The position numbers and the translations under genes are program-made. Of a DNA stretch of 64,000 nt, positions 1,335 through 61,636 are shown piece after piece. How positions within the stretch are numbered: position 1 is the first letter of the stretch; every line of letters starts with the position of its first letter. The notes beneath the pieces were generated by a model. The model did not search any database, was not told the DNA's origin, and saw only the letters and a list, made by a program, of their open reading frames with translations. Source of the DNA: Morinoia aosen (taxonomy: Eukaryota; Arthropoda; Malacostraca; Amphipoda; Talitridae); the NCBI GenBank assembly GCA_030386875.1, contig CM059560.1, positions 25,641,683-25,705,682 of the forward strand. The letters are read 5' to 3'.

Positions 1335-1532
1335 CTGCCGCTGCTGGCAGCTTTGACTGCCCCAGAGCTGCAGGCGCGGCACTGGGAGCAAATGGAGGGA
1401 GTGGTGGGAGGTCACCTGCCCCCCACACTGACGGTGAACTACATCCACCACATCCTCGGCTACGCGCCGCAGCTCATCCGAGTGGCCAGGGAGGCGAAGC
1501 TGCAGCACCGCATGGAGGAGCTGCTAGCTACG
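1335..1532 (+). CDS. Dynein exon 1: linker start
   Basis: The acceptor is ...ttgcag and the donor is ACG|gtgggg, phase 0 to 0. The translation holds the linker signature PELQARHWEQM and continues with a helical stretch ending at MEELLAT, like the start of the DHC_N2 linker domain in all dynein heavy chains. GC-rich codons contrast with the AT-rich introns. The donor is weak (gtgggg), so the exact end is the least sure part. Confidence 0.85.
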
Positions 1533-4500
1533 GTGGGGCAACCAGCAAGTGTGTGGGCATGTAGAATATGCGAGACACTTGTTTATTAACTGAATATTTG
1601 TCTTGTAATCGCTCTGTGTTGTGAAATGCTATCGAGTCCCATTGAAATGAGACATTCACTTTGATTACTTGTCAGCTTGCTCGCTAGCTTACTTGGTTTC
1701 TCCGTCTTCCTTACCATTATTTGAAGCCCAGGATATAATCGGCAATAATTGACATCGAATAAATAGAAATATATACTTGATAAAGAGTTACTTGACTGTC
1801 TTCATGATATCTCCCACTGTTTAGAGCAGTTTTTCTTAACCTTTTTATTCCCACGGCCTCCTTAAGAATTTACAGGGGGAATTGTGTACGGATGGACTGG
1901 TATATACGAGCTCACAACAAAAAATTTTGTATATAGGTCCTCAAACATGTTCAGCTGTGAAAGTTCACTCTTTGTCGCAAACATAACTGGGAAAAATCAT
2001 GCTATACTGCGGAGGCTCACGAGCATATTTATAGGCTCACGAGCATAATGAGAGCATATATATATTTTTTATTTACAGCTTTTTTATTTTGAAGTATTTG
2101 TTTCTTTCCTGCATTTAAAGGATTAAAAATATGGAACTTATAAAAGTTATACAGCTCGTATCACAAGTGCGCTTATAACACACCTTTTCGTTCAGGTGAT
2201 CAGAGATTAATAAACACTCGTATACATTTTTAGTATGAATTAAATAATTCATATCTTATATAATTGAGCCTCAATAATACAGGACTGATTTTTGACAGCG
2301 CGAGTTCATTACTTTCAACTATAGAATACAGGGTGATTTAGAACAAGAGGTACAAAATTGCACACCTAGTTGAAAATGGCCAAATAAACACTTTTTCTTT
2401 CATGAAATTTTTGGAAAAAATTCGTGTTTTTAAGATATTCGCTGCTTATTGTTTTAAAGGATGAAATATAAATACACAAATAATTGCAATATTTATTTTG
2501 AATTTACGTTACAAACACTTCTATTCTGAGAGAGTTTACATCAATGAAATTTAGTTTAAGTGACATTTATTAAAAAAGTTTTAGCAAGAAGGTATTAGAC
2601 TGTTCCAGATCGTGCTACCAGATTACTTCTTGTTTGTCTTGTTGGCACTGATCAGTTTTTAAGGAACCGCGACGCCGGTAACATGAACCGTATAACAAAT
2701 GCTGACATGGCAGACATACACCTTGGTTATGGTGCTGCTAATGGCAATGCGAGACTGGCAGCTAGGCTGCGATGTATCAAGAACTGATCCCTAAATATTG
2801 CGTGTAGGCTAATTGTGTAATTAAATTTTATCCTTCAAAACAATAAACAGCAAATAACCAAAAAACCCGAATTTATTTCGGAAAATTTCATAGAATAAAA
2901 ATGGATAATTTGGCTATTTCCTACTTGGTGTACAATTTTGTACCTCTTGTTCTGAAACACCCTGTATAAATATTGATATTTTTGGCATCTGAATTCTTTT
3001 TATTTATTTTAATCTTGTTTACCTAGATTTTTACTGTTTCATGCAACTCTAACCCGCCAACTGATAAACATGTGATGGTTGTTCGAAAAATATTTCGCAG
3101 ACACAGTGGACTACATCAGTGCAATCTGGTTTAAGCGCTAGTCTCCTACTACCCCTACTATGCCCATTATTTAAACGAGTTAAGTTCAGTTGCAGTTAAG
3201 AAAATGGTCGGGTTGCAATCGCCCTTTTTGGATTCAGGTTTGTGCGAATTTTATACACTTTTTCTTCTGAATATTTAGTACCATTAGTTCGGAATATTCA
3301 GTAACCATTTGTTTGGAATTTTTTGTAACATTTATGTAGAAATTTTGAGTACCATTCTGCGTAGTTCTTGGTTCAGTTTATTCAGAGTTTTTGGTTCAGT
3401 TTATTCAGAGTCTTTAACGCGATTTCTTTGTAGTTTTTGGTTCCATTCATAATATCGGCGGAATGCTTTGCTCTCACAGTCACGGCAGCTAGTGGAGGAG
3501 ATAGAGGTGCCGGTGAGCAGGTGGTGCGACTTGCCCTGCCTGGGGGACATGGCGAGTGTGCAGGACGCGCTCATGCAGGCAGACCAGAACCTGTACAGCC
3601 TCCTGCACTCGCCCTATGCTCAGCACATCAGACAGGACGCTGTCCAGCTGCGCCACAGCTACATACAAATAAAAATAACCTTGGTGTGTTCCTTTGCTTG
3701 AGTCGTGTTCAGTCATGTTCGTATGGTTCTTATTGTTAATGAAAAGTTCTAAATGTTCGTTGATTCGGTCAGCCAAACGTAAGGCAAATTTTATTTGTCT
3801 AGAACTAGGGAGTTGTTTTGACTCATACAAAATTAAATACATGTGGTCGATTACATACGTAAGACTATTTATGGGTTTAAAAAATACCAATCGCGTTTCT
3901 GTTTACAGTCAGCGTGGGAAGAGTTGGAGTCGGAGTACAAGTTACTGCATCCCGCCCTGTCCTCTAGGGAGGCTGAAACTCTCTTCCCAGCTCAGGCGGC
4001 TCTTTTTCGCATTACTGCAAATTTTTGGACCGATATCATGAACAGGTACTGCACCAAATGTTTACAACCAATGCCTATTTACGGAACCAACTTTGAAAAG
4101 ATATTTGAGATTTGTTCTGTACTTTCCTCATGACAAATGAAGAAAGATTGCGAGACAACTTACACTTTTTCCTACCTGAAATATTAATTGCTTACGTTTA
4201 AGAAGAAGCTTTTAAATTTGACCCACTTTAAATGTAACCTAAATGCTGTGAAAAAACGAGTCGGGAGCTGATCAAATTGTCGCGCAGAGCTGCCTCAGCT
4301 CCTAAGGCTCTGACTCTGCTGCGAGGGCGGCTGCTGCTGGACGAGCTGACTTTCCATCGTGAGGAGCTGCGGGCGCTGAGGGGCTGCCTCGCCCCGCTGC
4401 TGGACGCGCGGCGCCTCACGTGTCCGCGCCTCTTCTTGTTGAGTGATGAACAGCTCGTGCGCCTCCTCACCAGAGGCCATGTGAGGCTGTGTTGTTTGGG

Positions 4501-7500: not shown

Positions 7501-10500
7501 ACCATTAATTTTCATCTCCGAGACCCTCACACTTTAATATTTTTCTCTCCGTGATGTCATTTAAGGGAATTTCTTAACGTTTCGCAGTACCCATAACAGT
7601 GATCACCTGTGTGGGCAGGAAGCAAGTGTCTGCCACCAATACCTGCCCAGGATGTTCTCCGGCGCCGTGGCGCTGCGAAAGGAACACCTCCTCATCTCGG
7701 CCGTCCTGGCCCACCACGGCGAATTGCTCCTGCTGGACAAGGTGGGTCTGCGGCAACTGATTTGATATTGCGCGGTCATCTGGTTTGGGTCCGCCACATG
7801 TAAGTAAGGTCTTAGCATTGAACTCCGTGAAGAATTGAGTTTTTGTAGCCCCTGAATTTAGTTCTTTGGTACTTTTTTTGAAGACTTTGAAAACGCAGCA
7901 TGGAGTGATATCGTTAAATTTTATCTTTGATAAATCTCGGCATAGTCTACATTTGAGACGAGGACAGAAATCAAGAAAGATAATAAGTCGAACAATAAAA
8001 ATATATCTAGAAATAAGTTGCCCAAATTATTTTTGTTTAGCCATTGTCTTTACTAATTAGTAATCAATGCTGAAATAGCTGTATTAAAGCTAGGAAATAT
8101 GACTATTCAGACACCAGTTGAGGAGCAACCTGAATGTAAATGATGTCTCAAGATTCCCTCCAGTTGTTAAATGTTCTTTGCCATTGCATATCTGACGAAT
8201 GTTCTTAGCTCAAGATTAACTTTAGGAATTAAGGATTTTGCAATTAATTATCCAACGAACTTCATAAACTTGAGATCGATTTTAGCATTTAAATTTTCTC
8301 TGCTACTAATTGAAAACCAAACTTGTTAAATTCAAGATTAAATGTAGCAGTTAAAGAGTTCTTTACTGTAAATAATCGAACAAACTCCTTTAACTCAAGA
8401 CTTATTTCGATAGTTTACTATTTTTTTTCTATGAATGAGAAGCCATAAACTCGATCTTATTAACTCTCGTTACGCTGGGCTGTAAATAAGTTCGAAAATG
8501 ACTGGTTAAACAGAAAAACATTACATCCCAATGTCAGAATGCACGAACTCTCCTGTTGAGCTTGTTTACCTGACAGTTTCGGGGGCAATTCTGCACTCGG
8601 AGAAATAGGTTAAATACTGACTACACTGTAATCTATTGACTCTTTTTCTTTATTTTATGCTCAATGAAATTTCCCATCTCTAGATTGATGTCATAACACC
8701 TTCGGTTTTTATCGTTTTCACCATTTTGTTACCGTTCATCGTAATGGAGCTAAAATTTTCCAGCCTGCCATCGTTTGAAAATTGATGGTAGTTTTCCTAA
8801 ACCCTGTATTATCAAATTGTTTCAAGTTATCATGGTTGATATTTTACTACAACGCCGTGATGCAATTACATCAAGTACATACTGCCCTACACCTCGTCAG
8901 TTCACGTACATGACCTGCAACCCCTGTTGAATTTATTTGAATTTCATAATCTGGCAAATTCAAGCTATTGCTAGAAGTGCTATTTTTTTATAAATGTAAT
9001 TATTTGTAGTTCGTCGATTAGAGTGGATGTCAAAAAACATGAAATCTAATTGAGAAAATTAAAGCTTAACAAGACGTGACTGTAGGCGGTGTCTGCCCGG
9101 CACCGAGTGGAGGACTGGCTGAGCAGAGTGGAGGGCGCCATGAGGGCCGCCACTCGCCGCCTCCTGCTGCAGCACCACGGCCGCTCCTTCCTGCAGCTCC
9201 TGCAGCTCGGACACCAGATCCCTGTGCAGGTGTGCGCCTGGTCGTACCAGCAGTAGCGGACTGGTCTTTTTCTGCTACTGGATTTTGGGAGTAAATTATG
9301 TGAGGTGGTTCCTTTGGTAACTGAGATGAATGTTAATGGAATTACAAATTATTTAAATTCAGTTTTCGGTGTTTGGTTGCAAATTTGGAATGTATAGTAA
9401 TTTTTCTTGTTTTGATAATCATATAAAGCATCATATCAAAGTGTAGTGAGAAAATGAAGACTTTTAGCTCAGTTTTACTACATTGATTTGCATCTCACAC
9501 AGATCATTGATGTTTGCACTCGCCTGCGATGGGCGTCTAAAATGATTCACATAATTGAGGGCACAGCTGAACACGAGCTAATCAGCGAAGAGGATTTGTC
9601 TTGCCATCTCAGCCAGCCTTCTGATGAGCCAAGATCGCAAAATAGGAAGCCAGACATGGGAAATCTTCTTGACTTCATCAACGATCAAATACGGTTCGTA
9701 AGCAGTCGCATTTTATTCAACGAGAAGAATTTATCAGAGGCTAAAGAAAAGTCGTCCACGACGTGTGACGACGGGAATATTTTGAACGGACACAACTCTG
9801 CCCAGCAGGAGGTGAGCGTGCGTTCGTACAGGCTGTCTCGTAAAATTGGTACTTTGCACGAGAGTTTGTCTTTGCAGGAGCAGGATCTCTACCACGTTGT
9901 GTCCTGTTCTATCTCGGATCAAAGAAGAGACAATGAATCCAGCGCATTACAACCGTTCGTTCTGGACATCGACGAAGATCACACCTCTAACTCGCTTCAC
10001 GATAACGCTAATGGTTCGATGATGAGCAGTAAGTGTTAACTTTATCGAAAGTATTTTCGTTTCGAAAATTATCGTTTAACATGATAAAACTTTGAGCTTG
10101 GGCAATCTTTTCCTTTTGAACGTTTTTCCAACTCTCTGCCTTGACAGAAGTTTCCTGCTGTCGAAAGGAGTTGGTGTTGGAAGAACTGAGGTTGCGTCAC
10201 ATCTATTTCACATTGTGCGACCTGCGAGACGTTACCTCCGACCTTCAAAAGTCTTCACCAAAATCCTGGTATTGATTTGAATTAACTATAATTATGTAAA
10301 TGTTTCTTTATCGTTGTAGTATCGTGGTATTTCAGCACGATATGAGATTTATTGAACAGAACCTGTAGCTTCTGTTCGCCTAGCCGAATATCAGGCAGAA
10401 GGAAAGGAAACGCACTGTAGGACTTTTAATATTGTACTGGTCTCTGTAGTTCACACAGCTTGCTCTTAAGTCTAGTGCGTAACTAAGAAGTTCCGCCTCT

Positions 10501-13500: not shown

Positions 13501-16500
13501 ATTGATTCTCACAAATTAAATATTTTCCTAGAAGTCAATAATACATCAAAATAATTATATTGAATCAATAGTCGTATGACCCTTCAATCTCATCCATTGT
13601 TAGAGAATAAAGACAATAAATAATGCAAGGACATTTAAAAGCGCAAAACAGGAACTAAGTATTGTATACGTTCTTAATGCTTTTCATTTAATGATGAAAT
13701 GAAGATGTCAAATGCCGCAGTCACTGCGAGCTTCAAACTCCCTCTGCAATTGGCAACGCCACACTGGTTGCCTAGTGTGATAGCGCACCCACAAGTTGCG
13801 TCATTTCAGTTGCCGTAACCGAGGCAAAGTGTTGCCCCGTGTAATAGGGCCTGAAATTCGGAATGAAGTGAGTGATTGGTTCCCAGTTGTGATAGGCGTG
13901 AGACAGGGATGTGTGATAATGCCGTGGTTGTTCAATTTGTTTATGGATGGTGTAGTGAAAGAAGTGAATGCGAGAGTGTTGGGAAAAGGTGCACAGTTGG
14001 TGGGACAAAATGGTATGAAGTTGGAAGTGTGTCAGTTGTTTTTTGCAGATGATACAGCGTTTGTGGCGGATTCAGAGGAAAAACTACGGAGACTGGTTGC
14101 AGAGTTTGGTAGAGTGTGCGAGAGGCGCAAGTTGAGAGTGAATGTAAACAAAGGCAAGGTTCTGAGATGTTCAAGAGATGGAGTGTTTAGAACATTGGAT
14201 GTGAGAATGACTGCATGGTGTAGTGTTAAAGGAGGTAGAGCATTTCAGGTACCTCGGGTCGGACGTGGCTGGGAATGATGGTAAGTAATTAGAAGTGAGA
14301 CATCGAGTGAGTGAAGGCTGCAAGACGTTGGGTGCAATGAGGAAAGTTTTTGAATGCAGGAGTATGAGTGTGTGTGCTAAAAGGAGATTTTAAAAGCTTA
14401 ATCGTGCCCGTTTTGCTGTTTGAAGCAGAGTCTTGGGGTTTGAGAGCAGCTGAGAGGAAGAAGCGGGATGTGTTTGAGATGAAGTGGTTTAGGAGCATAT
14501 TTGGAGTAACAAGAAGATATAGGATTATGAATGAGTTGGTTAAGGAGCAGACGGCTGATGTCAAAAGGATGAGTAGGCGGGCGGATGAATGAGTGCTTCG
14601 ATGGTTTGGGCATGTTGAAAGAATGAATGTTGAGCGACTGGGGAAAAATTATTTATGCGTCGGAGGTTAGTGGTATTAGAGCGCTAGGAAGACGACGGGC
14701 AAGTTGGCTAGATGGGGTGAAACATGCATTGCATGAGAGGGGTCTGCTGTGGACGTGGCGAAAGACACAACTGCGGACAGAAGTGAGTGGAAGCGGTGCA
14801 TAAGGATGTAATTATTTGATGCACTCACTGGGTGATAGGGTATATGTTTGAGTCCTGTCATGTTCGAGGGTAGGCTGCACACAAATGAAGTGGTCGGGGT
14901 AAACCAGCAATGGCGGTCGGGCCTGACTGTGAAAAAGGGTTGTGCTCGGCTGCTATTGATCCGGGCAGTTCTGGTGCGGCCTGTGCTACCTCGCTCGCCT
15001 ACTAGTCACTAGCGACTAATGATGAATGATTGTGGCTTGCTGTCAGCTACCCTCCTGTAAGGAGGAAAAGCCAGGTATATGTATGTATTTTCGTTATTAT
15101 CTTTTTGTCTTTTATTCTCCTTCCATCCTAACCTGTTTTCATCTCTAGCGTAACCTGTGTGGGGACACATCTCGTGCATTGTTCCCTACTTTTCATAGTT
15201 CATTCAAGTGATCCCTACTCTACGTTCCATTGATATCGTTGTTGTGACAAGGGAATTGAACTAACTTAAATAACAATAAAAATAATTCTTCACAGGGATA
15301 TGATGCTATGTTTTACTTTTAATCCAATCGTCCATTACTTGTAAGAAAACCAATTGTTTACTCTTCATTTTTAATCATTTGTAGAACTGTTAAAGTTAAC
15401 AATTTAAGGAGTTTTTTGATGGAAAGAGTTTAACGCATCTAGTAAAATTCAATGTTACAAACCCATCGAACGGTATTCACGAGATCGCATACTAAAGCAG
15501 CACTCATTTTTGTGCAAAGTAGTTGTTGGATTTATAAATTAAAGTTGATGAAAAAGTTTTCTCATCATAGGCTGCGTGGAAAACCCTATTACCGATGAAA
15601 ACAAAATTACCAGCAGTATAGTAATAAAAATAAAATATTACAGCAGATAGTGCACAAATTAGTAATTTCTCAGTTTTCTAAAGTTGATTGAGTTCTCTTT
15701 CTGAAGCTTGAGCTGGCAGTGGTTGCGTCATGGGCACCACAGCGTCGCCGGCACCGGCCGCTCAGCTGGAGTGTTTTGGAACATGGCTGGAATGTCTTTC
15801 CAGTACGGCTTAGAATTTTTGGGGATTCCGAGGTCTGTTAGCCGAAGTCCGTCGACTGACCGAGCTTTATTTAATCTAACCGTCGCTGCACATTCGAACC
15901 GCTGTGAGTTTTATTTTTTCATACGTGGTCAGGGTATGCACATAGTTTTTAACGTGCTTCTTTGGTATGTTTGTTGAGTTTGATGTACTTCATTACGTTT
16001 CTTAAAGTGCTCTAAAACACTTTTCAAAGTGCACTGATTATTTTTTATGGTAATTTTGAGATTAGTTATTTCAATGCAAAATACGATGAATGAACATCCA
16101 TTTCAATCTGGACTTCTTTTCTTGGCAAAACTTCCTTTTAACATATATATAGCATTCCGTTTTTATCCCTCCGTGTCGTACCTTGTGCTTGTTTAGCCCT
16201 AGCGAGAGTGGCTACACCAACTTTGATGAAAAAATGTACCAACATTGGTCGTTGAACATGGCTAGTTTCTAGGCAGAGTTTTTGAAAGTAAATATTTCCA
16301 AATTTTTATATATTTTATTAGCGAATTAAAAGTTCGTAAGCGATAATTGCGTTCGTAATTGATGATGATGATGATGATGATTGTGCAAATTCAAATTACC
16401 TCTTTATCATTCAAAATAATAGGTGCATTTTTGTACATTGCAACAGAAAGGATACTGTGAAGTGTTATTAAATTTAATCTGTCTTTCCAAAATTGCATGC

Positions 16501-19500
16501 ATTTTTTTTGTTTAATTTCCATGTTAATTTGTAATTTATTTTTCATAAAATTTTTCTTATAAATTTTTCTGATAAATTTTTATAGGCGGCGTGACCGTAG
16601 GTGGGATCGGCGCAGGAAAATCGGAAGCTGTGAAGACACTGGCCGGCTACTGCGGCAGACATGTTGTGGAACTGCCCGGGTTTTCTTGTGGGAAGGTGAT
16701 TTATTGAGTGCAATAACTCCAACCATAATAATACACAATTTCAAGCTCAAAAGGAACTTGGCGTTAGCCAAAATCAAAGCATTTATATTGAACCTCAACT
16801 GAAATGCGTATTGTGCTTTATTTTCATATCTTTGGGAAAATGGGGTTTTAGTTGGTGAATGTTTATCTCAATTGAAGAATTTGAGGTGTCAGCAATATTA
16901 TGGTCTGGAACTTTCAATTTTTCCACGCCCCAATTGCAGCAACACCTTTGCTGCGTCTCCGTTCGAGGCTCTCCGTGCGCAAATATTGAAATTAAAATTA
17001 AAGAAACTGGTAAATAACTATCTTGTTGCCAAACTATTTTCGAAAGAAATGGATTTGCAGTTTAACCCTTGAACACAAACCCTCTGCCAGGCCTAATCGA
17101 AATAATTTAAAATAACTTCACACCTAAGTCGAGATTTTAAGCATTTTTAATTTTTTAGTCTTAAGATACGTCGTGTGAGGAAAAATAAGAGCCAGGCAGT
17201 GTTTCTCTTTATCGGTTTCTACTTCAATGCGTCTGTTCTACAGCTATTTTTCTATTTGTCGAAAATAATGGTTATGGTTACTTAGGTTTGTGATGATGTC
17301 ACACCGACCATATGATTTGCGTTCTAAGACTGCTTTCATGTTGCTGCCAAGGTAATAAAATGAATTCTTTTTCTTTATCTGTTGGACTTACGTCGTCAAC
17401 GACAGAGACTCGCTTAATTCGACTTTCAGGTCAGCCACAGGCTGAACTTCTTTCCTTCATCCCGTCCAGAGTCTGGACCACGCAGTGACGGGGTGTGCGG
17501 GAGGAGGGCTGTGGCTGCTCGTCACAGACGCCGCCTTGTTGGGCTACGATGCCCTCAGCAGACTTTCACTCCTGTCTAGGGAAGTGGCAAGGGTCAGGCA
17601 GAGCGGCTTCAAAAGGTACCTCCAATTGCTTTTCAAAGTGCAAATTTTTCCCAGTGTAGTTATTTTATTGATGACGTGTTTGGTTTTCACATAGTTTGAA
17701 GTCCTAATTGCGGAATCCGTCAGTAAGAGTAATCAGCTAACAAATTGGATTTTACCTAATATTGGATTAAAATTTTTGTCTTTTGCAGTTGCATTATCGA
17801 CCACACCGAGGTGAAGCTTCATGACCACTTTGCAATCTTCATGACCATGACAACTCCAATATTACCCTGTGTAGTACCAGATGTTGAGGACTATTGTACT
17901 TCACCGAAAAAGCTAAAGCAGAGCAAAAATTTGGCTTGGGAGTTCGGTTCTATCATCGGACCTACACTGAGGATTGTACCGGTCGTGCTACCCTCTTCTG
18001 GTATGTGCGACACGTCTTTGACATCCTTGGTCACTACCATATTTATAATATACCAATCAACAATACTTAAGGATTGGTATAAAATTTTAAAGTCAGCCCA
18101 AGTTTGGGTGTTGCAATATGCAACACAATATTCTCACTGCATTGCTCGGTTGATCAAGGTACGTTTTCATCTCTTAAGTATATTTTGATTGTGTTTGAGG
18201 TGGGAATCATTCGAGGCCCCTAAGGCTCGATGGGCCGTTTTTTTATAAAGGATCCTTACGTGATGGGCTACTGTGCCCTAAAACTTTATGGGGCTACGGG
18301 CATTAGATCCCCCCAGTGAAGGGACCAAAAATCATGAGTATTTGACCCCATATAATAAGAAAACAAAACAAAGAATGAGAATTCTAAAACTATCAGTTTG
18401 TTTGCAATGTTACGAGGATTTCAAAACTGTCTTTGAATTTATTTTTAGCATAAATCTCAATGATTTCTATTCTTTTAAAATATCGATACAAATGAACTAA
18501 ATAACTAAAATTTCGAATTTTTTCAAAAAACTAAGGTCTAAATCAAAAAATGATTGAAACAAAATGTGTTTCTTTTTAAAAATTACATACAGAGGTCAAA
18601 TTTCAGAAGAATCAGACCAAAAAATAACAATTCATCATTCATCAAGAAACGAATAATTTTTTCATCTATACTTTATTTTTATTGTTTGACTTGTAGTTTA
18701 CATTTCGCAGTGTAAATATGAAATTATGCATGGAGATTATCAAAAAAACATGAAAACAGCATTCGAGTTTAAAAATTGTTCATTATATTTGCTCCAGCAA
18801 AGAATTTGCTCTAGCATAAAAACTCAATGACTTCTATTCTTTTGAAATCTATACTATAATAAGAGCCGCGTCCGTCGGTCGGTCGGTCAGTCTGTCCAAA
18901 GCCAGCCGAAAGTGTGTGATGAGCGTATCTGTGATACAAGTTCCAGCCCAATATATTTTGACGGGCCGTGTGCTCGCGGCCTCATCAACTCGCGAGACTC
19001 GAGAGATTGTATTTTTTTATTATTTCTTAAGACCTTTCTCTCGTTTCGCCCTCTTTTTATTTCAAATAAAGGGGGGTGGACTAGTTTCCATAAAAATGAA
19101 CTAAAAAACTAGTTCTTCCGATTTTTTTCAAAAACTAAGGCATAAATCGAAAAAGTTTCTTGAGTAAAATATGTTTTATTTTCAAACATACATACACTGG
19201 CCAAATTTCAGACGAATCGAATCAAAATTTAAAATCAAAGGATGACCCCATTATTAAGGAGTCGTAGAATAACTTCTAAGGGGGCCCTCCCGTCAAAATT
19301 GAATTTTGATCCAATTAGTCTGAAATTTAGCAACTATATTTATTTTTGCAAGAAAAACATATTTTATTCGGGAAGTTTTTTGATTAAGGCCTTAGTTTTA
19401 TTTTTATTTCTGAAAAACTAGTTTTTTGGTTCATTTTTGGGATGTTTTCAAAAGAATAGAAGTCAATGAATTTTTATGTTAGAACAAATACAAAGACAGT

Positions 19501-40500: not shown

Positions 40501-43500
40501 TGACCGTATGAAAATGGTTTTGACCGTGTGAAAATGGTTTTGGCCTCGTGAAAATTGTTTTAACAGTGTGAAAATTGTTTTGACTGTGTGAAAATTGTTT
40601 TGGCCGAGTGAAAATTGTTTTGACTGTGTGAAAATTGTTTTGGCCGAGTGAAAATTGTTTTGACTGTGTGACAATTGTTTTGGCCGAGTGAAAATTGTTT
40701 TGACTGTGTGAAAATTGTTTTGGCCGAGTGCAAATTGTTTTGGCCGAGTGAAAATTGTTTTGGCCGTGTGAAAATTGTTTTGACTGTGTGAAAATTGTTT
40801 TGGCCGAGTGAAAATTGTTTTGGCCGTGTGAAAGTTGTTTTGACCGTGTGAAAGTTGTTTTGACCGTGTGAAAGTTGTTTTGACCGTGTGAAAGTTGTTT
40901 TGACCGTGTGAAAGTTGTTTTGACCGTGTGAAAGTTGTTTTGACCGTGTGAAAGTTGTTTTGACCGTGTGAAAGTTGTTTTGACTGTGTAAAAGTTGTTC
41001 TGACCGTGTGTAAATTCTCTTGACCATGTTCAAATTTTCTTGACTCTGTGAGTATTGGTATAGCCCTGTGAATGGAAGTGCATTTGACCACGTTGAAATT
41101 GGTTTGGCCATTTGAAAATAACTGGTACAGCTATTTAAAAATAATAGGTTGGCCATTTGAATAAATGGGTTTGACCCTCTGAAAATAGCAAGTTTGACCA
41201 TTTGAAAATAGCAAGTTAGACCATTCGAAATATTTTGGTTTGGCTATTTTTGAAAACTTGTATGGCCTTTTGAAAATGATTAATTTGGGCATGAAGATAT
41301 TTTTTCTGTCATTGGGAAAATAATTAAAAATAAATAAAATAAAATAAAATCTTCTTACCGGGAAAGTGCTCTTTTGAAATTGCTAAATTGACTGGAAAAA
41401 TCCTCATAGTTCATAAAATGGCTCAGAGCGTTCCATGTAGTGCAAATTGTTTTCCGACTGTAGAATTGAGCATCACAGAAAGGAAGGACAAACTGTCTCA
41501 CTTTCTTGGTTTATTTTCAAATTCTTTGTCTTGCGCTCCTTCGTAGGAGTGTAATCACGATCAGATTACAGGGTATGAGAGAAGATATTGAACTGTTAGT
41601 AGTTAAACGGGACTCTCACCATTTTTTTCTCTCTTTCGATATGCTTGTGTGATGTACGCATGAAAGCGTTGTTTGTTATTGCAGAGTGTTCGAGGTGCTA
41701 CCTTCGGCCTGCGAACCACAAGGTGACGGAAGCGAGGACTGGTTGCACACTCTCCGTCTTGCGCTCAGGGAACTTCTGAAGGAAAGCAACCACTGCGCCG
41801 TCGTGGTGCGGCCTAGGCTTTTACCTCAGCACATTTTGTACAAGCTCGTCGCTCTTGCAGTTGACGGTGAGGAATGAATTTGATACCTTCACGTCGACCA
41901 GTTTATTATGCAGGAGTCATTATCATGGGATTTCAGCATATGTTAGCAGATTAAAATAATTTATGGATTTTGTGCGTGTGTTGTAAGTCCTATTGAATTA
42001 GCTTAGAATCTAACATTAAAATTCAGTTGTCATTATTGCATGGTTTCTGCCTTTTCATTACACTCTATTCATTTTTTTAAACTAGTTTGACGTTGAGGAG
42101 ATACTGCAAGAAAAGTGTGTGTGTTTTAATAGTGAAAAGAGGTAAGAGAAATTTGAATAACATAAAGGAAGGTGCCGAGAAGAATTCTAACCAGCTACTT
42201 TTACTGGATCTATCATTTCACAGTCAAATAGCATGCATTATAGCTGAATTATCTCCCACGCTTGTCTTGGTCGCACCTGCTTGAAAAATTCCTGCAGTGA
42301 TGAAGCTGTGTACCTTCAGCCAAATGTGTTAGTGAAATCAATGGAGGTGGATCATGCACCGTCAGCTTAATGACCGCTGAAGAAGTATATTTCTGATTTC
42401 GTTATTTAGCCGTTTTATAGCCCTTTTCAATCAGTGAAATTTCAATGCGTGATACGTGTAATATTGTCCGAATTTACAGTTTTATCTTCCTTTCAAGGTT
42501 AAGAGAACAAAACACAAAACCTCTAAATTTGCCACATGATAGAAAATAAGCACCCTGAACGGCGTTGCTTGACTATGTAATATTAACTTATCTAACCAAA
42601 TAATATTCATTTAATTGACCAGATAAAGTTCGCTTGCCTGACTAGATGAAATTTGCTTGCCTGACCAAATAACTTCGTCAGGCTGGGCGCGTGGGGTATT
42701 CACTACAGAGGAAGAAGAGGAGCTGCTACGTCATGAGCGAGCTGCTGAAAATCTGGGCAAGGCTGGGAACGCTCCTGCCCACCTGGTCCATCTTCTTCCG
42801 GAAGAACTGTTCAAGTACCGCAATGTCTTGAAATGCAAGCTGCGGTCTAAGCTTCATGTTTGCTTCATTGTCGATTCCCCTGATGTGAGAATACTCAAAT
42901 ATTGTTCCGCATTTTTCTGTTTATAGTTCTTAACTTCTTTGCTAGATGGCATTGGAAAGCATTGGTTCACAGTCTCAACGGTTAAGTCAATTTCTGGCCA
43001 GAACAGTATCAGTTTATTTATCGTTGAACAGCAACCGAGTTCGATTTAGCGCCATTTGTTGTATTTATGTGGGAAGCATGTCTGATTTCAAATCAGAAAA
43101 AGCGAAGGAAACGGTGTATGAAATTTTGCTTTCTTGGCTTAAAAGAAAGTTTGCCCGTATCTGTTAGGGACTGGAGACAAAAAATGGATCTGCTTTTAGA
43201 ATCTAAACTGTAAAAAGTCAAAGGCTGACCCAGGATAACAATCAACACCGACCGCAAAACCGAAACACTTCGGAAAGAAAACAGTGCTGTGCCTTTCGTT
43301 TGAATCAAAAGGGTGTGATGCACCATATAGTTCCTAAAACAATGAAAAATATTGAATACCGTTTGCCAACGATAACAATTGGTCAATTCGAAATTTACAT
43401 TGATCAAAAAAAACGTTCAGATGAGGCTGCAAGACAACAGATCACACGTATCTCAAGGCAACAGCTCATCTCACATACAGTAAGACAACGACATGTCACA

Positions 43501-46500
43501 AACAACGTATAACACCAGTTCTGCACTCTGCAACGGGAAATCTTGCATTGCTTGTCGTACTCATCAGACTTGGCCGCTTTGGACTACCACTTGTTTCTAT
43601 GGCTGCCTTTTTCATTTTCCCAGCAACGCCTGAAGATATAAAAAATGACTTGTTGACTGGATTACCTAAAAATCGGAATGATTTGGTGGGACGGCATCCA
43701 CGATTTAAAGAAGAGATTGGCACAATGTGGAACTAGCAATGGTTCATTCGTTGAATTAAACGTGTTTTATTTCTCGTGAGATAAAATTGTTATAATTGAC
43801 AAAAAATTATGATTTTTAACTGGCACACCGGGTAAATGTTTGTTAATAATTGTTGTTTGGACATTTTGATGAATTGTACCGTATTTACTCTTAGATTGTC
43901 GATTTGATATGATTATAGGTTCCAAATATCGTTTCCAAATGAATTTTCTCAGCATAATCAATATGAAGTAGGAATAGCAGCAGTTTGTGCCTTCAATGTA
44001 CACTGACTTTCACGTTTTAATATGACAGTTCTATTTCATTTCTATTCATGCGTGCATTTCTGCAAATATTGTAGTAACATTTCTGCAGATCTTTATTTAT
44101 GCAAATGCAATGGATTACGAACAGATGAACGATTGTATTATAAGCTGCATTACGCCAGTGCAATGCACTCGAGTTTTTATCAATATGTTTTTCTTGTCTT
44201 GAGGCTTGAGCTACTGGTCACCTTGAGGAACTATGTAAAAAATTACTTCATTTTTTCATGTGTGTTCGTCTCTGTTATTTCAGATTTCTTAATGATTCAA
44301 GCAATTTTTTACTTCAATGTTTATCACAGATAAGACGCGCGTTCGTTCTCTCAAGACACGAAATGATGCAATCACGCAGGATTTCTAACGTGAATCACCG
44401 AGTCCTACACCCACACAGGGGGTGGACGTGCTGATACGTGTGAACGAGGCGGTGCTGTGGTGTTGCATCTCCGTGCCAGTCGAGCGCTGGTCGAGGGCAG
44501 ACTTGTACCACATGGCCAGTGTCTTGCTAGAGCCTCTTGCTCTGCCCGAACCCTTCAGTGGCCAACTGTTGGCATGTCTCGTCAAGCTCTATGAGGTATT
44601 ATTACACACTTCTGCATTACAAAATGTATTCGTCCTGAGTTGAATGCGTTAGATTTTTATTGACCTCTCACTTTTAGACTTTCGATGCTTTTCATCTGTA
44701 GCGTTGTTATATGCGACGTGAACAAACGGGAATGGGTAAATAAATATATTTATGCATGCATCTTTGAATATTTGGACATTTTATTCATTTTGCACAGTTT
44801 CCTCAATTGTTTACTGTCCTACCAGTAATTCACACTGACTGCATAATTGGCTCTCCATGAGTGCAATATGATTGTTCAATCGTGTTTCCACTATGAAAGT
44901 GTTATCAAATTATTTAAAAAGTGGTGACATAGAAAATAGATATACATTTGGGGCTTACAGCTGTATTTGAAACAATATTCTTTGAAATTTAATTCTTCAG
45001 CATTGTGCCTTCTGAAATGCCGAACATTATCGTAAAATTCTAAGGAGATTTTCCAACCCAGTCTACACGGCTCACTTCCGAATTTCAGAGCCATTCTGTC
45101 AAGTCTTCGAAAGCCAACACCGGTGATCTCGTGGAGTTCTGCCTCATGCTTCGGCGATTCGTCTTCGTACGCCGTCTTAACTTACGGAACGCGATGTCTC
45201 TATTACAAGATGGACTGCAGGTGTGTTATTTTTCATTGTGTGTGATTTTCTGCCCTCAGATTTGGAAAAAGTAAATTACAATTACCAAAATTGGGTTGGA
45301 TATCATCAGTTGTGTATACATGGGAATTAGAACTCCCGAGGGAAAAGTGAGGGCCTAAGCTAAGAGATAGGTAGGCCTTTTTTGTTGATATAAAACGTTT
45401 TTGTTGTGTTAAGGACCATCTTTTTTCGGTTCGCTGCTGTCCTATTTTTCAGCACCGACTTCTTTCTTCTTCGAGTTTGATCATGTTTCATACTCTTCTT
45501 TCTCAACTTACTGTTTCTTTGCCCTTTCTGCATTGATTCCGCGTTCCCTTCACTTCATTCTAAATGGTGCCTTCCTCCTTCCTCTCTTTGGATCACCTTA
45601 GTGGCGGATAGGGATGACAAAACTAACTAATGATCTAATCTTTATCATTTGTGATTTTTCTATTGATAATGAAGATCACAGCGCTCTCTTTTCCGAATAT
45701 CCTCCACAGAGGCGAAGATGAAGTGAGTGATCTATTTGCGATACCCATTCAAATACAATAAACGTATGAATCGCTTAAATATTTCTTGTTTAAGTTGATT
45801 TTTTTCAGTTTTGATGAGGCGTAACACTAAATTGATTGACAGTTATACCTCTCATGTGCTATGAAAAGAAACCCAGCCTCCAAGTATGTAGTGAAATTTG
45901 TCTACAGCGTCAAAGGGGAAATACAAGTTTTTCATTTTAATGTTTTCAGAAGTACTAATGAATGAGCTATTTTAAACAGTGAATCTGGGTTTAATTCAGA
46001 TTTAAGGAAAATGATTCGGTAAATAAATATTTTTTTCGTTAAAGTTCAATATACTTGACAGAGATTGGCGGAGTCTAGTAAAAACGTGGACGACCTGCGA
46101 GGAGAGCTGGCGGGACTGGAGCCTGCGCTGAAGAAAACCTTCGAGAAGTGCGGGAGCTACACCACCGAGCTGGGCGAACAGCGAGAGGTGGTGGCGCAAC
46201 TCAGGGACCGCCTCGCGCAGCACCAAGAGAAAGTGAAGGTGGCGTGGTAGAAAACAACATCATGAACTTTGCAATACTGATAAAATATGTTAACTCTTTT
46301 TCGTTTTCTCTGCCTTTTTCCCTCGTTTTCATCAGTCTTTTCCCCTTGTTTTCACCGTCTTTTTTCCTTGTTTTTACCGTCTTTTTCCCTTGTTTTCGCT
46401 GTCTTTTTCCCTTGTTTTTACTGTCTCTCTCCCTTGTTTTCTCTGTCTCCCTTCCTTGTTTTCTCTTTCTCTTTCCCTTCTTTTCTCTGTCTCTTTCCTT

Positions 46501-49500
46501 TCTTTTCTCTGTCTCTCTCTATCGGTAAGAGTGATGTTTCATTTTTCACCGTGTATAGAAGAAGGGAGCAAAAAGAAAATCAGTTCGAAAAAAAATACTC
46601 GTCAAATTTTTATCATAAAATACAGTGAAGAATTGGGAGTTAATGCGCTATAAATTGCAATATTTTGCTTTATTTCATAACAAATCATGAAATTGAAATA
46701 CGAAACAGAATGTGCGCGTCTCATAATAAAAATTCTAACATCATGCTCTGTCGCTGTAACTCTGTAATTGCACAAGGCTGCAACAGTGAAAGGGGTATAG
46801 GAAGCTGTTCTTTTTAAGGCAGAGAGGAGGTCTTCGAGACACTCAAGAGAAGAAGGGAAACGCAGGCATAATGCATGGGTGCACTCCTCAGCCTCTAAAC
46901 TAGAAGATTTTCTGACTATTTAAACGTGGAATATCATTAATTACGGTATCCGATTTTCAAATTTAGAACGGTGTTGACTAACGACTGGTCAGCATTTCAT
47001 CTTGGATATGTTGTGATGATAATTTAAAATGTAAGACTGTAAATATCAAAGAAATTGATTAATTTTAAATAAATTGTATAGCGTAAAATATTTGAAAACA
47101 TCAAGAAAAGTAGTTTCTCCCATTTCCTTTACATTTGGATTTGAGTATTAAATTTTGAAGTATTTGAAGTATCAATCTACTGTACATGGTGATATTTAGA
47201 GTTAAGATACAATTTTTAGCTCATCAACTATACATACCAGGACATTACTTGAACTTAAAGTGGAATGCATTTTTGTAATATAAACCGTGAGGCATTGAAT
47301 TGAAATAAATTATTTGTGTTAATTATTCGTGTTAATTCTTTATTTAAAAAAATAAATCAGGAAGTCTCAGAGTGTAATGTGTCATCATTCACTCATGTTC
47401 CAATACTCAATGAGAACACAGATTTTACCAATATGAAAACAACGGCCAAGACAACGTCAATAACGAAATTAATTTTTGCGCTCATCCACATGTGATGCAC
47501 AGTTCATCAGTTCAAAGTGAATGCTGAATTAAGGTGACATTGAAGTACAGTTTTTCTAAATATCACAGGACCAAGAGGAAATTGTATCGAAACAAACAGC
47601 AGAGGTGGCTGCCGACTTGAAGGCGGCCCTCGCAGTGGTGGAGGCCTCAGAAAAGGGCCTCAAAGGTCTTGATAAGAAAGACTTGAACGAGGTGCGGGCT
47701 CTGAGCAAGCCTCCCGAGCTGGTCGTCACCTGCCTCGAGCCTGTGTGCCTTCTTCTGGGTGTCAGGTGAGAGGCATTGCGACACCTGCCGACTGTGCGAC
47801 CATCATCACAGTTTTGAAAGTCTCAAAGTCTGGGTGTCAGGTCTAGGTTTCAGGTGAGATGCATTGCGATGCCCGTCGTGAAAGGGTTGCTGGAGCGCAA
47901 AAGAAATCAAGTGAGACAAGCTGTCAGCTCAGAAGCGGACTCAATTTGATGCATTTTTTCTAGTACAATACATTCCATGTCATCAATAAATCAGGTTATT
48001 AATTCATAAATTGAATCATCTACCCTCGAAAGAACAAGTAGCCGAAGAAAATTCGTGAGTACGAAGACTAAAAGTATTATTCTAATAAAAGTATTATTCT
48101 AAGTATTAATCTAATCCCAATATTTAAGGTTAATATCTTAGTTAATAGCAGAATACCCATCTCGTGAGGTGTTCATCCTGTCTTTGTCTCTCCGGATCTA
48201 CAACTCTTGAAGTGTTGGCTGGCACCATTCTTACGTATGCATTCAAGTTTAGTTTTCTTTGCGCTCGTGTGATTTTGTTATCTATCAAAATACTATCTGT
48301 TTACTGCAAGGAATTAAAATTCGTTCGTAAGTAGGATATGTAAGGACCTTCAGCACTGTAGTTCACTTGCATTGGCAGGAGCCTAAATTTAACTCATGAA
48401 CAGCTTGTTTATAGGAAACTGTAACGTAAATAATACAGTTGTGTAATATCTTGGAATTTCAGCAAGATATAAGGTTTACTGGACAGCACTTGTAGATCGG
48501 TTAGCCTAGCCGTAAACCAGGCAAGAGGATAGCAAAACGAACAGCAGGACTACTAGTTTTGTACTGATCTCCAGTTCACACAGCTTGCTCTTAAGTCTAG
48601 TTCGAACAATGAACTTCCGCCCGGCAGTAGGGGCGCTACCGACCTATCCGGCGCTCGTAAATACCAGGCGCGCATCGGCTGTTCCGCCGGAAACTCCGAG
48701 CGAGCGAGACTCATAAATCTCCGCAGCCGGAACCTCCATAAATATCACAAGAGCGTCACTATACAACAACTTCCCTCCCTTTAGATGAATATGTGACAAA
48801 GGGAAGGAGGAACTCAACAACCTATTCGTATTACAGGTTTGGTTATTCTGCCTGATCTACGAGGTTTATTTTGCTCAGGAGAGCTGTTAACAGGCTGAAA
48901 AGCAGGAGTCTCTGCTGCTCCACTCCCGGTAGATTCCAAACTACTGTGCAACAGCTGATTTGAATGTCTCTTCCAGATTACATTTAATGCTAATATTTGA
49001 ACATGAAAGATATTAACGGCAACTTTACTAACAATAATTCCCTTCAACCACTTGGGACCATTTCTTAAATTCAGAGCGAGAACATGATCCCCGACATCAA
49101 ATTGAGTTACATACATAGGCTTAGACCTGGACACAGAAAATTTAGGATGAACTCTATCTTTGGAAGTAACAAATTTACGATTGTTCAGCGCAACAGAGGG
49201 AACAATTTTTGTAACACTATGCGGAATACAATGCGATTGAAATAATGCTTTCGCTAGACGGGATTTGAACGATTCGGAAGAAGATAGTTTTTTCAACAAG
49301 TCTTTAATGACTCTTACCCCCCTCTCAGCTTGACCATTGCTTGCTGGAGAGTAGGGCGGAGGTGTGAGGTGCTCAATGCCGTTGGAAATAAGAAAATCTT
49401 TGAAGTCTTGAGATGAAAAGTTAGAAGCATTGTCACTTACGAGCACATCACACAACCCGTTTCTGCTGAAAATCATTCTCAACGCATCGACAGTATCTGA

Positions 49501-52500: not shown

Positions 52501-55500
52501 AAATGTAACCGATGCACCGACGATGGATTTTTTAATTTCAAATTGCTGTGTTAATTTTTCTTCAAGTTCCTCATATGTAGCCTCAGTGAGTAACGTAGGT
52601 TTAATTCTTCGTTGTAGATCAGTAATTATGTTTACAGGCAAAGCTTTGATTAAAATACTAGCTTTTTTATCGCCATTATTTCCTGCTTTCTGAAGAGCGT
52701 CTGCACTTTGTACTTTCCAGCGCTCCAAGAATTCACTCACTGTTTCTACTTCCACGTCGAACGGAGGGCAGCTGACTGTAGAATACGCCATCTTAATTTC
52801 AGAGCACTTTTAAAGTTCAAATTCACTTCGCAAGTTCGAAGCCTCGTCGCCAATTGTAATATCTTGGAATTTCAGCAAGATATAAGGTTTACTGGACAGC
52901 ACTTGTAGATCGGTTAGCCTAGCCGTAAACCAGGCAAGAGGATAGCAAAACGAACAGCAGGACTACTAGTTTTGTACTGATCTCCAGTTCACACAGCTTG
53001 CTCTTAAGTCTAGTTCGAACAATGAACTTCCGCCCGGCAGTAGGGGCGCTACCGACCTATCCGGCGCTCGTAAATACCAGGCGCGCATCGGCTGTTCCGC
53101 CGGAAACTCCGAGCGAGCGAGACTCATAAATCTCCGCAGCCGGAACCTCCATAAATATCACAAGAGCGTCACTATACAACAAGTTGATAATAGCAACACT
53201 CACGAATGTGGATAAAATATAATATACCTGACATGTGTTAGATACATACTGGAAGAAGCATGGTATCGGTGCTTTAAAAGTCTTCTTCATAGCCTTAAAA
53301 AGCTTTATTGGATATCTAACGGCTAACAGCTCTAATGTGTTTTATTTTTTGTTTAATTTGTACCCTGATGTTTCTCCAAAGTTCACTTCCGAACGGCTGT
53401 TGCTTCCTCATTCTGATGTGTATGAAAAGCAGGTGCCAGTGCTTATCTAATAAAGGTGAGGTATAGACAATGATCTGAGCAAAAACTTTCGAATGCCAAA
53501 AAAGTAAATTAAGCTCCGTATCTGGTAGGGAATCAGGGAAGCGGATAAACGTATTAACTTATAAGTATACATAACGTAATTGCTAAAGGTGGGCGTGTAT
53601 TTCCCATTTTGATCAATAATTCTCTTAAGAATGAATTATTTTCAGACTTGATTGGTCCTCAATGAAGACACTGCTCGGAGATGCATCCATGATAAAGCGG
53701 CTACTCGATATTGACAAGAATAACATCAACGATGCGCTGCTTCGCAAGCTTAAAAAATATTTAGAAATGCCCAAGTTTACGCCAGATGAGGTAAGTCTGT
53801 AGGGGTATGTATGAAGAATCAATGTTTAACACTCCATAGTAATTTTTCGATGCCTAAAAATATATTGTATCACATTATTTAATTACATAAACACCGCTGT
53901 TGGAAGATTTTAACGCGGATTGTTTTACGTTTGAAGCACACATCGGCGAACGACTTGCGGAGCGAGCGTTCCACACCCATGTTCTGCCGCTAATTTTTTG
54001 AAGCAAGCCTTCACCAAATGCTTATAGCAATATTTTTAGCCTGCTAAATTCATTCTCAATTCATGTTTAGTAGCTTGCAAGAATGATAGAGTATATGGCA
54101 GTTACGAATCATCTCACATTTTAATTTCATTATTTTCATTACTTATGTAAACGAACAATTTCGAAAAAAAAACAATATTGCTTACTACAAAGTAACTGGA
54201 CCTAATAAACTGTTTAATACTATAATGCTTATTTTTAAAACCTCTCAAACAATTACCAAAATGAAATTCGAATGAGAGGAAACTTACTAATATTTAACAG
54301 CTTGAGAATAAATATTTAGGCGTTGAAATTCTCACGAAATAGCTTTCGTAAAATAGCAATGGCTTCCTTTTACCTTCTCTAGTTTATTTTTATCAAAAGT
54401 ACTTTTGTCCCTCTAGATGGGAAAAGTGTCGCGGCCTTGCCGGGTGCTCTGCGTGTGGCTGTTCGCTTTGGACCGCTACTCACACGCCCTTGTCTTGCTC
54501 CAGCCCAAGAAACTGAGGTAATGCTGATGCTTATGTAAACCTGTGCTCTAGATCAATCGTGTCTCTGCTGTGGAGTGTTTCGCTCCAATTTACTTGCAGG
54601 ACATGAAGCGTAGTATGCGGTCTACTGAAAAAAGACTAACGTAGTTTACATTGACGTTCCCCCGCAGTTTTTCTGCGGGGAAATATTCTAACAGCAACGA
54701 CAAATCTGGAAAGAAATATGGTTCATTGAGGATTGAAGTCATGATTTCTGTTCCTTTTATTATGTATTTCAAAGAGACTTATATATACTTGAATAGTAAC
54801 TTTTATTTCAGCCGACGTTGGTCTTGTGTTCGCTATAAGCCCTAAAACTCAATTTATGTGAATAAGGGGAACATTTACGACCATATTTGTTAGAGTTCTC
54901 AAGTATTTGCCAAATGCCATTTTAGTTATGAGTCCCTCCAGCAAGTCATTAGTTGCAAAGAAAGATGAAACAGGTTTTTTATTCATATCATGATTTTATT
55001 TAACCCTTATCTTCTCCGTTGATCAACTCGATAGCAAGAGAACTACTGTGAGCTACCAATACTGATAAAAGGACCTGAATTGTGAACTGGCTGCCCAAGC
55101 TGAGAGTTAGGTAGGCTTTCTTTTTGTTCAAATAAAATGTCTATTTTTTATGCTTAGGACCACCTTTTTCGGTTCACTGCTGGCCTGTCTTTCAGTTTAC
55201 CTAATGCTTTTTTCTTTGACTTTTATCTTGTTTTATAAATTTCTTTCTCGACTTACTGTTTCTATGCAACTTATGCAATGATTCCGAGTCCAATACTAAA
55301 TTATCTCCATACTAAATGATGCTTTCTTCCTTCCTCTCGTGGTAACTTTTTTTGCGATTAGGGGAGCCCAAACTAATATCTAATCTAATCTAATCTGCAG
55401 ACTGGCTGAGGCGGAGCGAGATCTCAGCGCACTTCTGCTGCAGCAGCGCCAGCTTCAGCAACAGCTGGGTGAGGCTCCCGGTGTCATCCGTCAACTCCGT

Positions 55501-61630: not shown

Positions 61631-61636
61631 ACGGAC

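What the first reader, a model, noticed from the sequence alone, without database searches (positions are those of the whole stretch)
1335..56099. Dynein heavy chain with most ATP sites disabled but stalk and microtubule-binding domain kept
Seen: 35 exons in family order with consistent phases. AAA1 Walker A GGIGAGKS is intact but Walker B reads VTDAALLG instead of DEFNRI and the sensor NPGYAGR is gone; AAA2 has no GKT (HSRSISITM) and no acidic Walker B; AAA3 Walker A has Met for Lys (GHGMST); AAA4 has the usual Arg but VVVRPRLLP for Walker B. In contrast, exons 31-33 (stalk and MTBD) are close to the family pattern. Known: motor dyneins need AAA1 hydrolysis; DNHD1 in vertebrates is a divergent heavy chain needed in sperm flagella. 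Inference: a microtubule-binding, possibly non-motile dynein heavy chain of DNHD1 type in an arthropod.
Basis: partly seen in the sequence, partly recalled or inferred. Interest (0 to 1): 0.88.

Follow-up and report, generated by a model that had tools for sequence, protein, structure and literature searches.

The report
Motor-dead dynein that keeps microtubule grip
This crustacean-type gene descends from a dynein motor of cilia (DNAH6) whose fuel-burning sites have decayed while its microtubule-gripping part is still protected by selection, so it probably works as a passive microtubule linker rather than a motor.

Summary
In detail: the window carries the middle of a dynein heavy chain gene with eroded ATP motifs and a kept microtubule-binding domain (MTBD). 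The DNHD1 reading is not supported. Nearest relatives are uncharacterised decapod proteins (Palaemon, Penaeus, Scylla, Petrolisthes, Macrobrachium) that group with DNAH6. Where readable, decapods share the loss of sensor-1 Asn, AAA3 Walker A Lys and AAA2 Walker B acid; the window gene has lost more. It is not a plain pseudogene: in 18 exons compared in three sister copies on the same chromosome there is no gap or stop, and 107 of 107 readable splice sites are kept. Window against copy B gives dN/dS 0.04 for stalk+MTBD, 0.15 linker, 0.26 AAA1, 0.26 AAA3-4. But only the window copy and copy A show all 3' exons; B and C lack some. Four canonical axonemal dyneins of the genome keep AAA1 Walker A and B; none of the six D6 loci classed as DNAH6, DNAH2 or DNAH10, which resembles the set of insect mechanosensory cilia. 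Best reading: a selected, probably non-motile DNAH6 derivative, perhaps a passive microtubule linker at an inner-arm site. Expression, location and species are unknown.

The parts
1335..1532 (+). linker (DHC_N2) exon
   Evidence: open in three sister copies
3480..3683 (+). linker exon
3909..4045 (+). linker exon
4262..4473 (+). linker coding block (splice ends unsure; the chain has 4288-4456)
7619..7741 (+). linker exon
9086..9229 (+). linker coding block (acceptor unsure; the chain has 9173-9229)
15714..15902 (+). AAA1 start (YGLEFLG) block; chain exon 15707-15933
16586..16695 (+). AAA1 Walker A GGIGAGKS (kept)
17470..17615 (+). AAA1 Walker B replaced (VTDAALLG for FDEFNRI)
17789..18000 (+). 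AAA1 sensor region, NPGYAGR lost (MTTPILP)
29863..29902 (+). probable AAA2 Walker A exon, motif lost (HSRSISITM)
   Evidence: alignment to decapod AAA2 by eye
31861..32051 (+). probable AAA2 Walker B exon without acid (WLLLRLP)
   Evidence: alignment by eye
36454..36602 (+). AAA3 Walker A, Lys to Met (GHGMST)
36945..37060 (+). AAA3 Walker B, acidic pair kept (LLEDVHL)
37398..37593 (+). AAA3 exon
38203..38799 (+). AAA3-AAA4 exon with low-complexity insert
39316..39485 (+). AAA4 Walker A, GSPGSGRR
41685..41866 (+). AAA4 Walker B lost (VVVRPRLLP)
42645..42828 (+). AAA4 coding block (chain exon 42682-42884)
44419..44595 (+). AAA4 lid exon
45062..45220 (+). start of stalk CC1
46062..46238 (+). stalk CC1 exon
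47569..47765 (+). stalk CC1 / MTBD start (LDKKDLNEVRALSKPPELV)
53646..53790 (+). MTBD exon
54417..54517 (+). MTBD / CC2 start
55401..55468 (+). stalk CC2 exon

Best explanation
A DNAH6-derived inner-arm dynein heavy chain that has probably stopped being a motor but is still a selected gene. Shown: family, DNAH6-side placement, motif erosion, retained MTBD, no recognisable D6 or C-terminal domain, sister copies under purifying selection that is strongest on stalk+MTBD. Inferred: AAA1 may still bind nucleotide (Walker A kept) but hardly hydrolyses it; the ring serves as scaffold and the stalk binds microtubules in a largely ATP-independent way, so the protein is a passive microtubule linker or placeholder, most likely at the DNAH6 (inner arm g) position of 9+0 mechanosensory cilia, the dynein-bearing cilia one would expect to remain where sperm lack flagella.
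For: Nearest relatives and placement. Motif table. Against Acanthaster DNAH6 the MTBD is 45/90 identical and AAA1 40/145 (Petrolisthes 52/91 and 50/160), while canonical DNAH6 of four animals shows the reverse, 57-63/91 and 140-151/160 (Fisher tests for window, Petrolisthes and Orchesella). dN/dS window against copy B: stalk+MTBD 0.04 (17 syn, 2 nonsyn), linker 0.15, AAA1 0.26, AAA3-4 0.26; stalk against AAA3-4 p 0.008. No gap or stop in 18 exons of three copies or 8 exons of copy B; 107 of 107 readable splice sites kept. Own axonemal dyneins keep AAA1 Walker A and B. Six D6 loci, classed as DYNC1H1, DYNC2H1, beta, DNAH5, DNAH7-like, DNAH3-like. Tail of the window gene: AAA_9 only, no D6 or Dynein_C. 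Drosophila chordotonal neurons express DNAH5, 11, 3, 7, 12 and 6 classes while DNAH2 and DNAH10 are testis-only (PMC6367277, passages).
Against: No RNA, protein or localisation data; species and sperm type unknown. Sister copies B and C lack matches for 7 and 2 of 13 3' exons, so some copies look damaged, and the module contrast in dN/dS rests on pairs with copy B; the complete pair, window against A, has one stalk difference. Stalk CC1 is only 29/121 identical to DNAH6, below the DNAH7 and DNAH2 rows. Decapods keep Walker A Lys in AAA2 and AAA4, Petrolisthes an AAA1 Asp-Glu pair, Penaeus the AAA4 Asp, so loss of hydrolysis is less clear there; AAA1 of only one decapod was read in full. One annotated DNAH2 model (ostrich, P0016) also reads an odd AAA1 Walker B and sensor, so model errors can mimic erosion. 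Long branches and unusual composition in the trees; DNHD1 absent from them.
Confidence: 0.57

Rival explanations
1. Arthropod DNHD1 orthologue: an ancient orphan heavy chain with decayed ATP sites.
For: DNHD1 is likewise called a dynein-related remnant and orphan (PMC8754002, passage).
Against: Best matches are DNAH6; DNAH6 plus decapods are one side of a branch with support 100 when window and DNAH14 are left out; no hit named DNHD1.
Confidence: 0.08
2. Decaying pseudogene family: copies of a lost DNAH6 on the way out.
For: Very long stem branch; copies B and C without matches for 7 and 2 of 13 3' exons, and a fifth copy at C5:3.447-3.500 Mb matched only at its 5' and 3' exons; one pair, A against B, has AAA1 dN/dS 0.97 on 4 changes.
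Against: No gap or stop in the compared exons, splice sites kept; dN/dS well below 1 for window against A, B and C; window copy and copy A matched at all 13 3' exons; decapod relatives of other genera 61-73% identical to the Penaeus query over 34-100% of it.
Confidence: 0.1
3. A slow or regulated motor: decapod members hydrolyse ATP at AAA1 with a changed Walker B and sensor, and the window species is a further derived case.
For: AAA1 Walker A kept in window and Petrolisthes; Petrolisthes keeps FDE; AAA2 and AAA4 Walker A kept in decapods; Penaeus keeps the AAA4 Asp.
Against: Sensor-1 Asn missing in window, Petrolisthes and Penaeus; AAA3 Lys missing in all four readable; no Dynein_C match in three decapod proteins scanned and D6 only below cut-off in two of the three; window gene without Walker B Asp-Glu in all four copies read.
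Confidence: 0.15
4. Same dead motor, other place: a crosslinker of non-axonemal microtubule arrays of aflagellate sperm or of the cytoplasm, rather than of mechanosensory cilia.
For: MTBD kept, motor eroded; some crustaceans have aflagellar sperm (PMC6357514, passages).
Against: The rest of the dynein set fits mechanosensory cilia; no expression data either way.
Confidence: 0.25

Closest known systems
DNAH6 (inner arm dynein g heavy chain; Drosophila Dhc16F)
   Same: linker, ring and stalk order; MTBD 45/90 identical to Acanthaster DNAH6; family groups with DNAH6
   Different: AAA1 40/145 against 140-151/160 among canonical DNAH6; motifs of AAA1-4 eroded; no D6 or Dynein_C match in the tail
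Decapod 'DNAH6-like' or uncharacterised proteins (P0001-P0004, P0028, P0053)
   Same: same gene family in the same order; AAA3 Lys loss shared by the three readable; short C-terminus
   Different: decapods keep AAA2 and AAA4 Walker A Lys, and Petrolisthes an AAA1 Asp-Glu pair; the window gene does not (AAA2 by eye)
DNHD1
   Same: an orphan dynein-related heavy chain discussed as a remnant (PMC8754002, passage)
   Different: no sequence relation found; direct comparison not made
DNAH14
   Same: the other inner-arm-g class; its Pseudonaja model also lacks a normal AAA3 Walker A
   Different: AAA1 Walker A and B intact and sensor NPGYKGR in that model; separate long branch

Membership tests
dynein heavy chain | DHC_N2 linker, AAA1, stalk/MT domain in order | tested here: met
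   (E 1.9e-34, 4.5e-10, 8e-18, above cut-off); gene order
DNAH6 lineage | groups with DNAH6 rather than other classes in a tree | tested here: met
   window and decapods with DNAH6 and DNAH14, SH-aLRT 84; decapods alone with DNAH6, 100; DNAH7/12, DNAH2, DYNC alternatives p-AU 0.011, 0.018, 0.008, chosen after the first tree
canonical motor dynein (DNAH6 function) | AAA1 Walker B Asp-Glu and sensor NPGYAGR | tested here: not met
   VTDAALL, MTTPI; same in the other three copies but for one Leu/Ser
canonical motor dynein (DNAH6 function) | AAA3 Walker A Lys | tested here: not met
   GHGMST; three decapods GHGLST or GHGLTT
canonical motor dynein (DNAH6 function) | D6 and C-terminal domain | tested here: not met
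   654 residues of the window gene's tail: AAA_9 only at E <= 1; three decapod proteins: no Dynein_C, D6 below cut-off in two
canonical motor dynein (DNAH6 function) | ATPase and microtubule gliding activity | not testable with these tools
   needs protein
microtubule-binding dynein stalk | MTBD and coiled-coil length kept | tested here: met
   MTBD 45/90, no internal gap in CC1; dN/dS 0.04; CC1 identity low, 29/121; binding itself not tested
DNHD1 | groups with vertebrate DNHD1 | tested here: inconclusive
   no DNHD1 sequence obtained; none named among the hits
pseudogene | frame breaks, neutral dN/dS | tested here: not met
   window copy; sister copies B and C lack some 3' exons

The most novel reading that the evidence does not exclude
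In crustaceans that gave up flagellated sperm, one inner-arm dynein (DNAH6) was not lost but turned into a dead-motor, ATP-independent microtubule linker of mechanosensory cilia, kept for its stalk and MTBD and multiplied in the window species to at least two complete and three incomplete copies: a natural experiment on which functions of a dynein arm are mechanical and which are structural.
Probability: 0.38. Interest if true: 0.82.

Novelty: new variant of a known kind. Interest (0 to 1): 0.7.

Why it matters
Axonemal dyneins are studied as motors. A heavy chain with its ATP cycle eroded but its microtubule grip under the strongest constraint of the four modules compared separates the tether role from the motor role, and makes the question 'what does an inner arm do besides pull?' testable in shrimp and crabs. 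It also suggests how an animal lineage may prune its dynein set.

Tried and rejected
DNHD1 membership: no support found, not directly testable. Reading artefact: unlikely, since AAA1 exons of four axonemal dyneins in the same genome read GPAGTGKTET and FDEFNRI (sensors: C14 and C16 NPGYAGR, C10 NLGYHGR, C23 read only as YQGR). A purely codon-based gene finder missed real exons; the homology-weighted rerun replaced it, and its in-window exons at 9503, 10476, 22380, 24057, 34334 and 34866 have no homology support. COX1 was found, but no protein search was left to name the species. Family searches with MT and AAA_6 did not list the window gene itself, so such searches can miss diverged dyneins, and one MT match, C9:67357945-67358454, was never classed. 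PF10211 (light chain) stayed unanswered in seven tries and PF04712 (radial spoke) in one. Print: eight searches gave listings without a paper on a motor-dead decapod DNAH6; only passages of four papers were opened. Searches (tblastn option; frame error) failed and were redone.

Full report
OBSERVATION. Every motif string of the finding is present in an open + strand frame. A splice-aware chain, weighted by tblastn matches to four decapod proteins and by twelve seeds that I chose, gives 53 phase-consistent exons over -3441 to 91350, 33 of them between 1335 and 56156. I kept 26 in-window blocks (1459 residues) on tblastn, alignment or by eye. Window position w is C5:25641682+w of a 1.99 Gb genome with 29 contigs. 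Pfam sees DHC_N2, AAA_6 and MT above cut-off. The gene begins upstream of the window (blocks at -2116 and -282). Its 3' end is unsettled: by eye the exon at 88465 reads on to a TAA at 88860 and fits the decapod tails, whereas the chain goes on to a weak last exon ending at 91350.

WHAT IT IS. phmmer against the PDB ranks DNAH6 first for the AAA4-stalk stretch (148, 144 and 144 bits for three DNAH6 chains; next an algal chain without class name, 115; best chain named as another DNAH class, DNAH2, 93). A search of 5.8 billion proteins ranks four decapod proteins first (36-37% identity, E 5e-93 to 1e-80), then hexapod proteins from E 2e-40, the named ones DNAH6; a fifth decapod protein follows at 1e-19; 52 listed. 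Searching with the Penaeus protein returns itself, five more decapod proteins and then DNAH6 of many animals (E 5e-109 and weaker), 50 listed at E <= 1e-30; in both only the candidates sharing most words were scored. In a 29-row tree of the AAA4-AAA6 region window and decapods form one clade (SH-aLRT 100) in a group with DNAH6 and DNAH14 (84), on a stem of 2.1 changes per column. Without window and DNAH14, DNAH6 and decapods are one side of a branch (100), decapods lying with the non-hexapod DNAH6 (93) on a stem of 2.9; groupings of decapods with DNAH7/12, DNAH2 or DYNC, chosen after the first tree, are rejected (p-AU 0.011, 0.018, 0.008). These are quick searches; the program warned of long branches and of unusual composition in the window and four of five decapod rows. 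DNHD1 could not be included.

ATP SITES (unless stated). AAA1 Walker A: window GGIGAGKS, Petrolisthes GAVGEGKT, canonical GPAGTGKT. AAA1 Walker B: window VTDAALL, Petrolisthes FDEAALL, DNAH6 FDEFNRI. Sensor 1: DNAH6 TMNPGYAGR; window TMTTPI, Petrolisthes TVTSPP, Penaeus SVTSQD. AAA2 Walker A: GKS or GKT in Petrolisthes, Penaeus and Scylla; window HSRSISITM (by eye). AAA2 Walker B Asp: lost in the three decapods, and in the window exon that I assign by eye (WLLLRLP). AAA3 Walker A: Lys to Met (window) or Leu (three decapods). AAA3 Walker B: acidic pair kept in all four. AAA4 Walker A: GKM or GKL in decapods, GRR in window, GKQ in DNAH6, GRQ and GRR in the DNAH7 and DNAH2 rows. AAA4 Walker B Asp: lost in window, Petrolisthes, Scylla and Palaemon, kept in Penaeus. 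So part of the erosion is a family trait and the window species has gone further. Against easy reading: the ostrich DNAH2 model also shows FEELARL and TMELEGEAR, and the DNAH14 model an odd AAA3 Walker A. The window gene's tail (654 residues) matches AAA_9 and no D6 or Dynein_C at E <= 1; three decapod proteins show no Dynein_C and D6 only below cut-off in two.

MICROTUBULE PART. Identity to Acanthaster DNAH6: MTBD 45/90 (window) and 52/91 (Petrolisthes) against 57-63/91 for four canonical DNAH6; AAA1 40/145 and 50/160 against 140-151/160; AAA4 14/119 and 26/117 against 84-100/120. The order is reversed relative to a canonical pair (Fisher p 7.6e-4 window, 9.5e-5 Petrolisthes, 2.0e-5 the other way for Orchesella). 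CC2 is 36/96, but CC1 only 29/121, below the DNAH7 (44/115) and DNAH2 (41/121) rows. Window against Petrolisthes: MTBD 55/90, CC2 61/96, CC1 41/121, AAA4 21/113.

SELECTION AND COPIES. Sister copies lie on C5 at about 24.41-24.53 (A), 25.01-25.11 (B) and 25.31-25.41 Mb (C); the window copy (D) at 25.64-25.73. In 18 exons of tail, linker, AAA1, stalk and MTBD none of A, B, C shows a gap or stop, and 107 of 107 readable splice dinucleotides are AG or GT. Nei-Gojobori, D against B: stalk+MTBD 17 synonymous, 2 nonsynonymous (0.04); linker 24 and 11 (0.15); AAA1 11 and 9 (0.26); AAA3-4, eight exons, 19 and 17 (0.26). D against A: linker 24 and 16 (0.21), AAA1 10 and 10 (0.31), stalk 1 and 0. A against B: linker 5 and 5 (0.33), AAA1 1 and 3 (0.97), stalk 16 and 2 (0.04). 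Pairs share history. Stalk differs from AAA3-4 (p 0.008) and AAA1 (p 0.031), without correction for several tests. Against a simple picture: of 13 exons from AAA5 to the C-terminus, D and A are matched at 13, C lacks matches for 2 (query 256-396) and B for 7 (query 1-396); a fifth copy at 3.447-3.500 Mb is matched only at the 5' and 3' exons. B and C may be damaged or misassembled; D against B then reflects selection up to that damage.

GENOME CONTEXT. D6 matches lie at six loci (nine matches). By AAA1 exons they class as beta (DNAH9/11/17-like, C14), DYNC2H1 (C13, 14.06 Mb) and DYNC1H1 (C13, 55.9 Mb) by tblastn against held proteins, DNAH5 (C10; the top chain is labelled CFAP57 but is 4730 residues long, the next is DNAH5), DNAH7-like (C16) and DNAH3-like (C23). 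The four axonemal ones keep GPAGTGKTET and FDEFNRI. A DNAH6 query over the AAA1 end and AAA2 found no locus at canonical level (24 matches, best 38% over 210 residues). Family searches score only the best candidates and did not list the window gene itself, so absence of other diverged dyneins is not shown. In Drosophila the chordotonal set is DNAH5, DNAH11 and 9, DNAH7, DNAH3, DNAH12 and DNAH6, with DNAH2 and DNAH10 testis-only; Dhc16F (DNAH6) knock-down gave infertility and poorer climbing (PMC6367277, passages). No DNAH12 locus was told apart here. Erosion of axonemal genes with aflagellar sperm in some crustaceans has been suggested for tektins (PMC6357514, passages).

HOW IT MAY WORK. Shown: ancestry, erosion, retained MTBD, selection. 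Inferred: with no usable Walker B and sensor at AAA1 and a broken AAA3, stepping is unlikely; the kept Walker A at AAA1 may hold nucleotide structurally; stalk and MTBD tether to a neighbouring microtubule. The place (inner arm g of mechanosensory cilia) is inferred from ancestry and from the rest of the dynein set. That the organism is a crustacean is inferred from the decapod relatives. Surest is that this is a selected DNAH6-side gene; least sure is where it acts.

Noticed in passing
G000:C6:14602500-14612400 (L042, minus strand) and C6:15.142-15.144 Mb: A second degenerate dynein heavy chain made of very long ORFs (1288 and 1711 aa; DHC_N2 E 2.3e-52, AAA1 Walker A GPKYSGKTET, a GAPGTGKTT P-loop), with a second copy seen as matches with frames of 1288 and 1718 aa. 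No close relative: best hit E 5e-16, 11 hits at E <= 1e-5 of 5070 candidates.
   Followed up: partly
G000:C5:3447450-3450550 (L073) and C5:3.490-3.500 Mb: Fifth copy of the window gene matched only at its 5' and 3' exons; the 5' part is 92-97% identical DNA.
   Followed up: partly
window 48449-53181: Insert with gag-, protease/RT- and integrase-like ORFs on the minus strand (by eye), with identical ORFs near both ends (48516-48713, 52929-53126); absent from the three sister copies, so probably younger than the duplications.
   Followed up: partly
window 5154-6332, 35444-35956 and 57158-64000: Transposase ORFs (DDE type and mariner-like, by eye) and LINE-type ORFs that run past the window end.
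   Followed up: no
G000:C27:55.3-71.6 Mb: Fourteen cytochrome oxidase subunit I matches, eleven without a stop inside (some are pieces of one gene), bacterial-looking, in one contig of an animal genome: probably joined bacterial contigs.
   Followed up: no
G000:C28, C29 and C26:20.75 and 21.03 Mb: Five equal-scoring mitochondrial-type COX1 matches (8 TGA each), two of them on C28 18.4 kb apart: head-to-tail mitochondrial assembly and probable nuclear copies.
   Followed up: no
G000:C9:67357945-67358454: A lone match to the dynein MT profile in a 349-residue frame (E 1.3e-5), not classed.
   Followed up: no
window 4450-4980, 6758-7290, 24324-25500: Repeat-like stretches that stay open in several frames.
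   Followed up: no
window coordinates 139501-144500 (L026-L027, beyond the window and the gene): A 5000-base run of N, gap or withheld.
   Followed up: no
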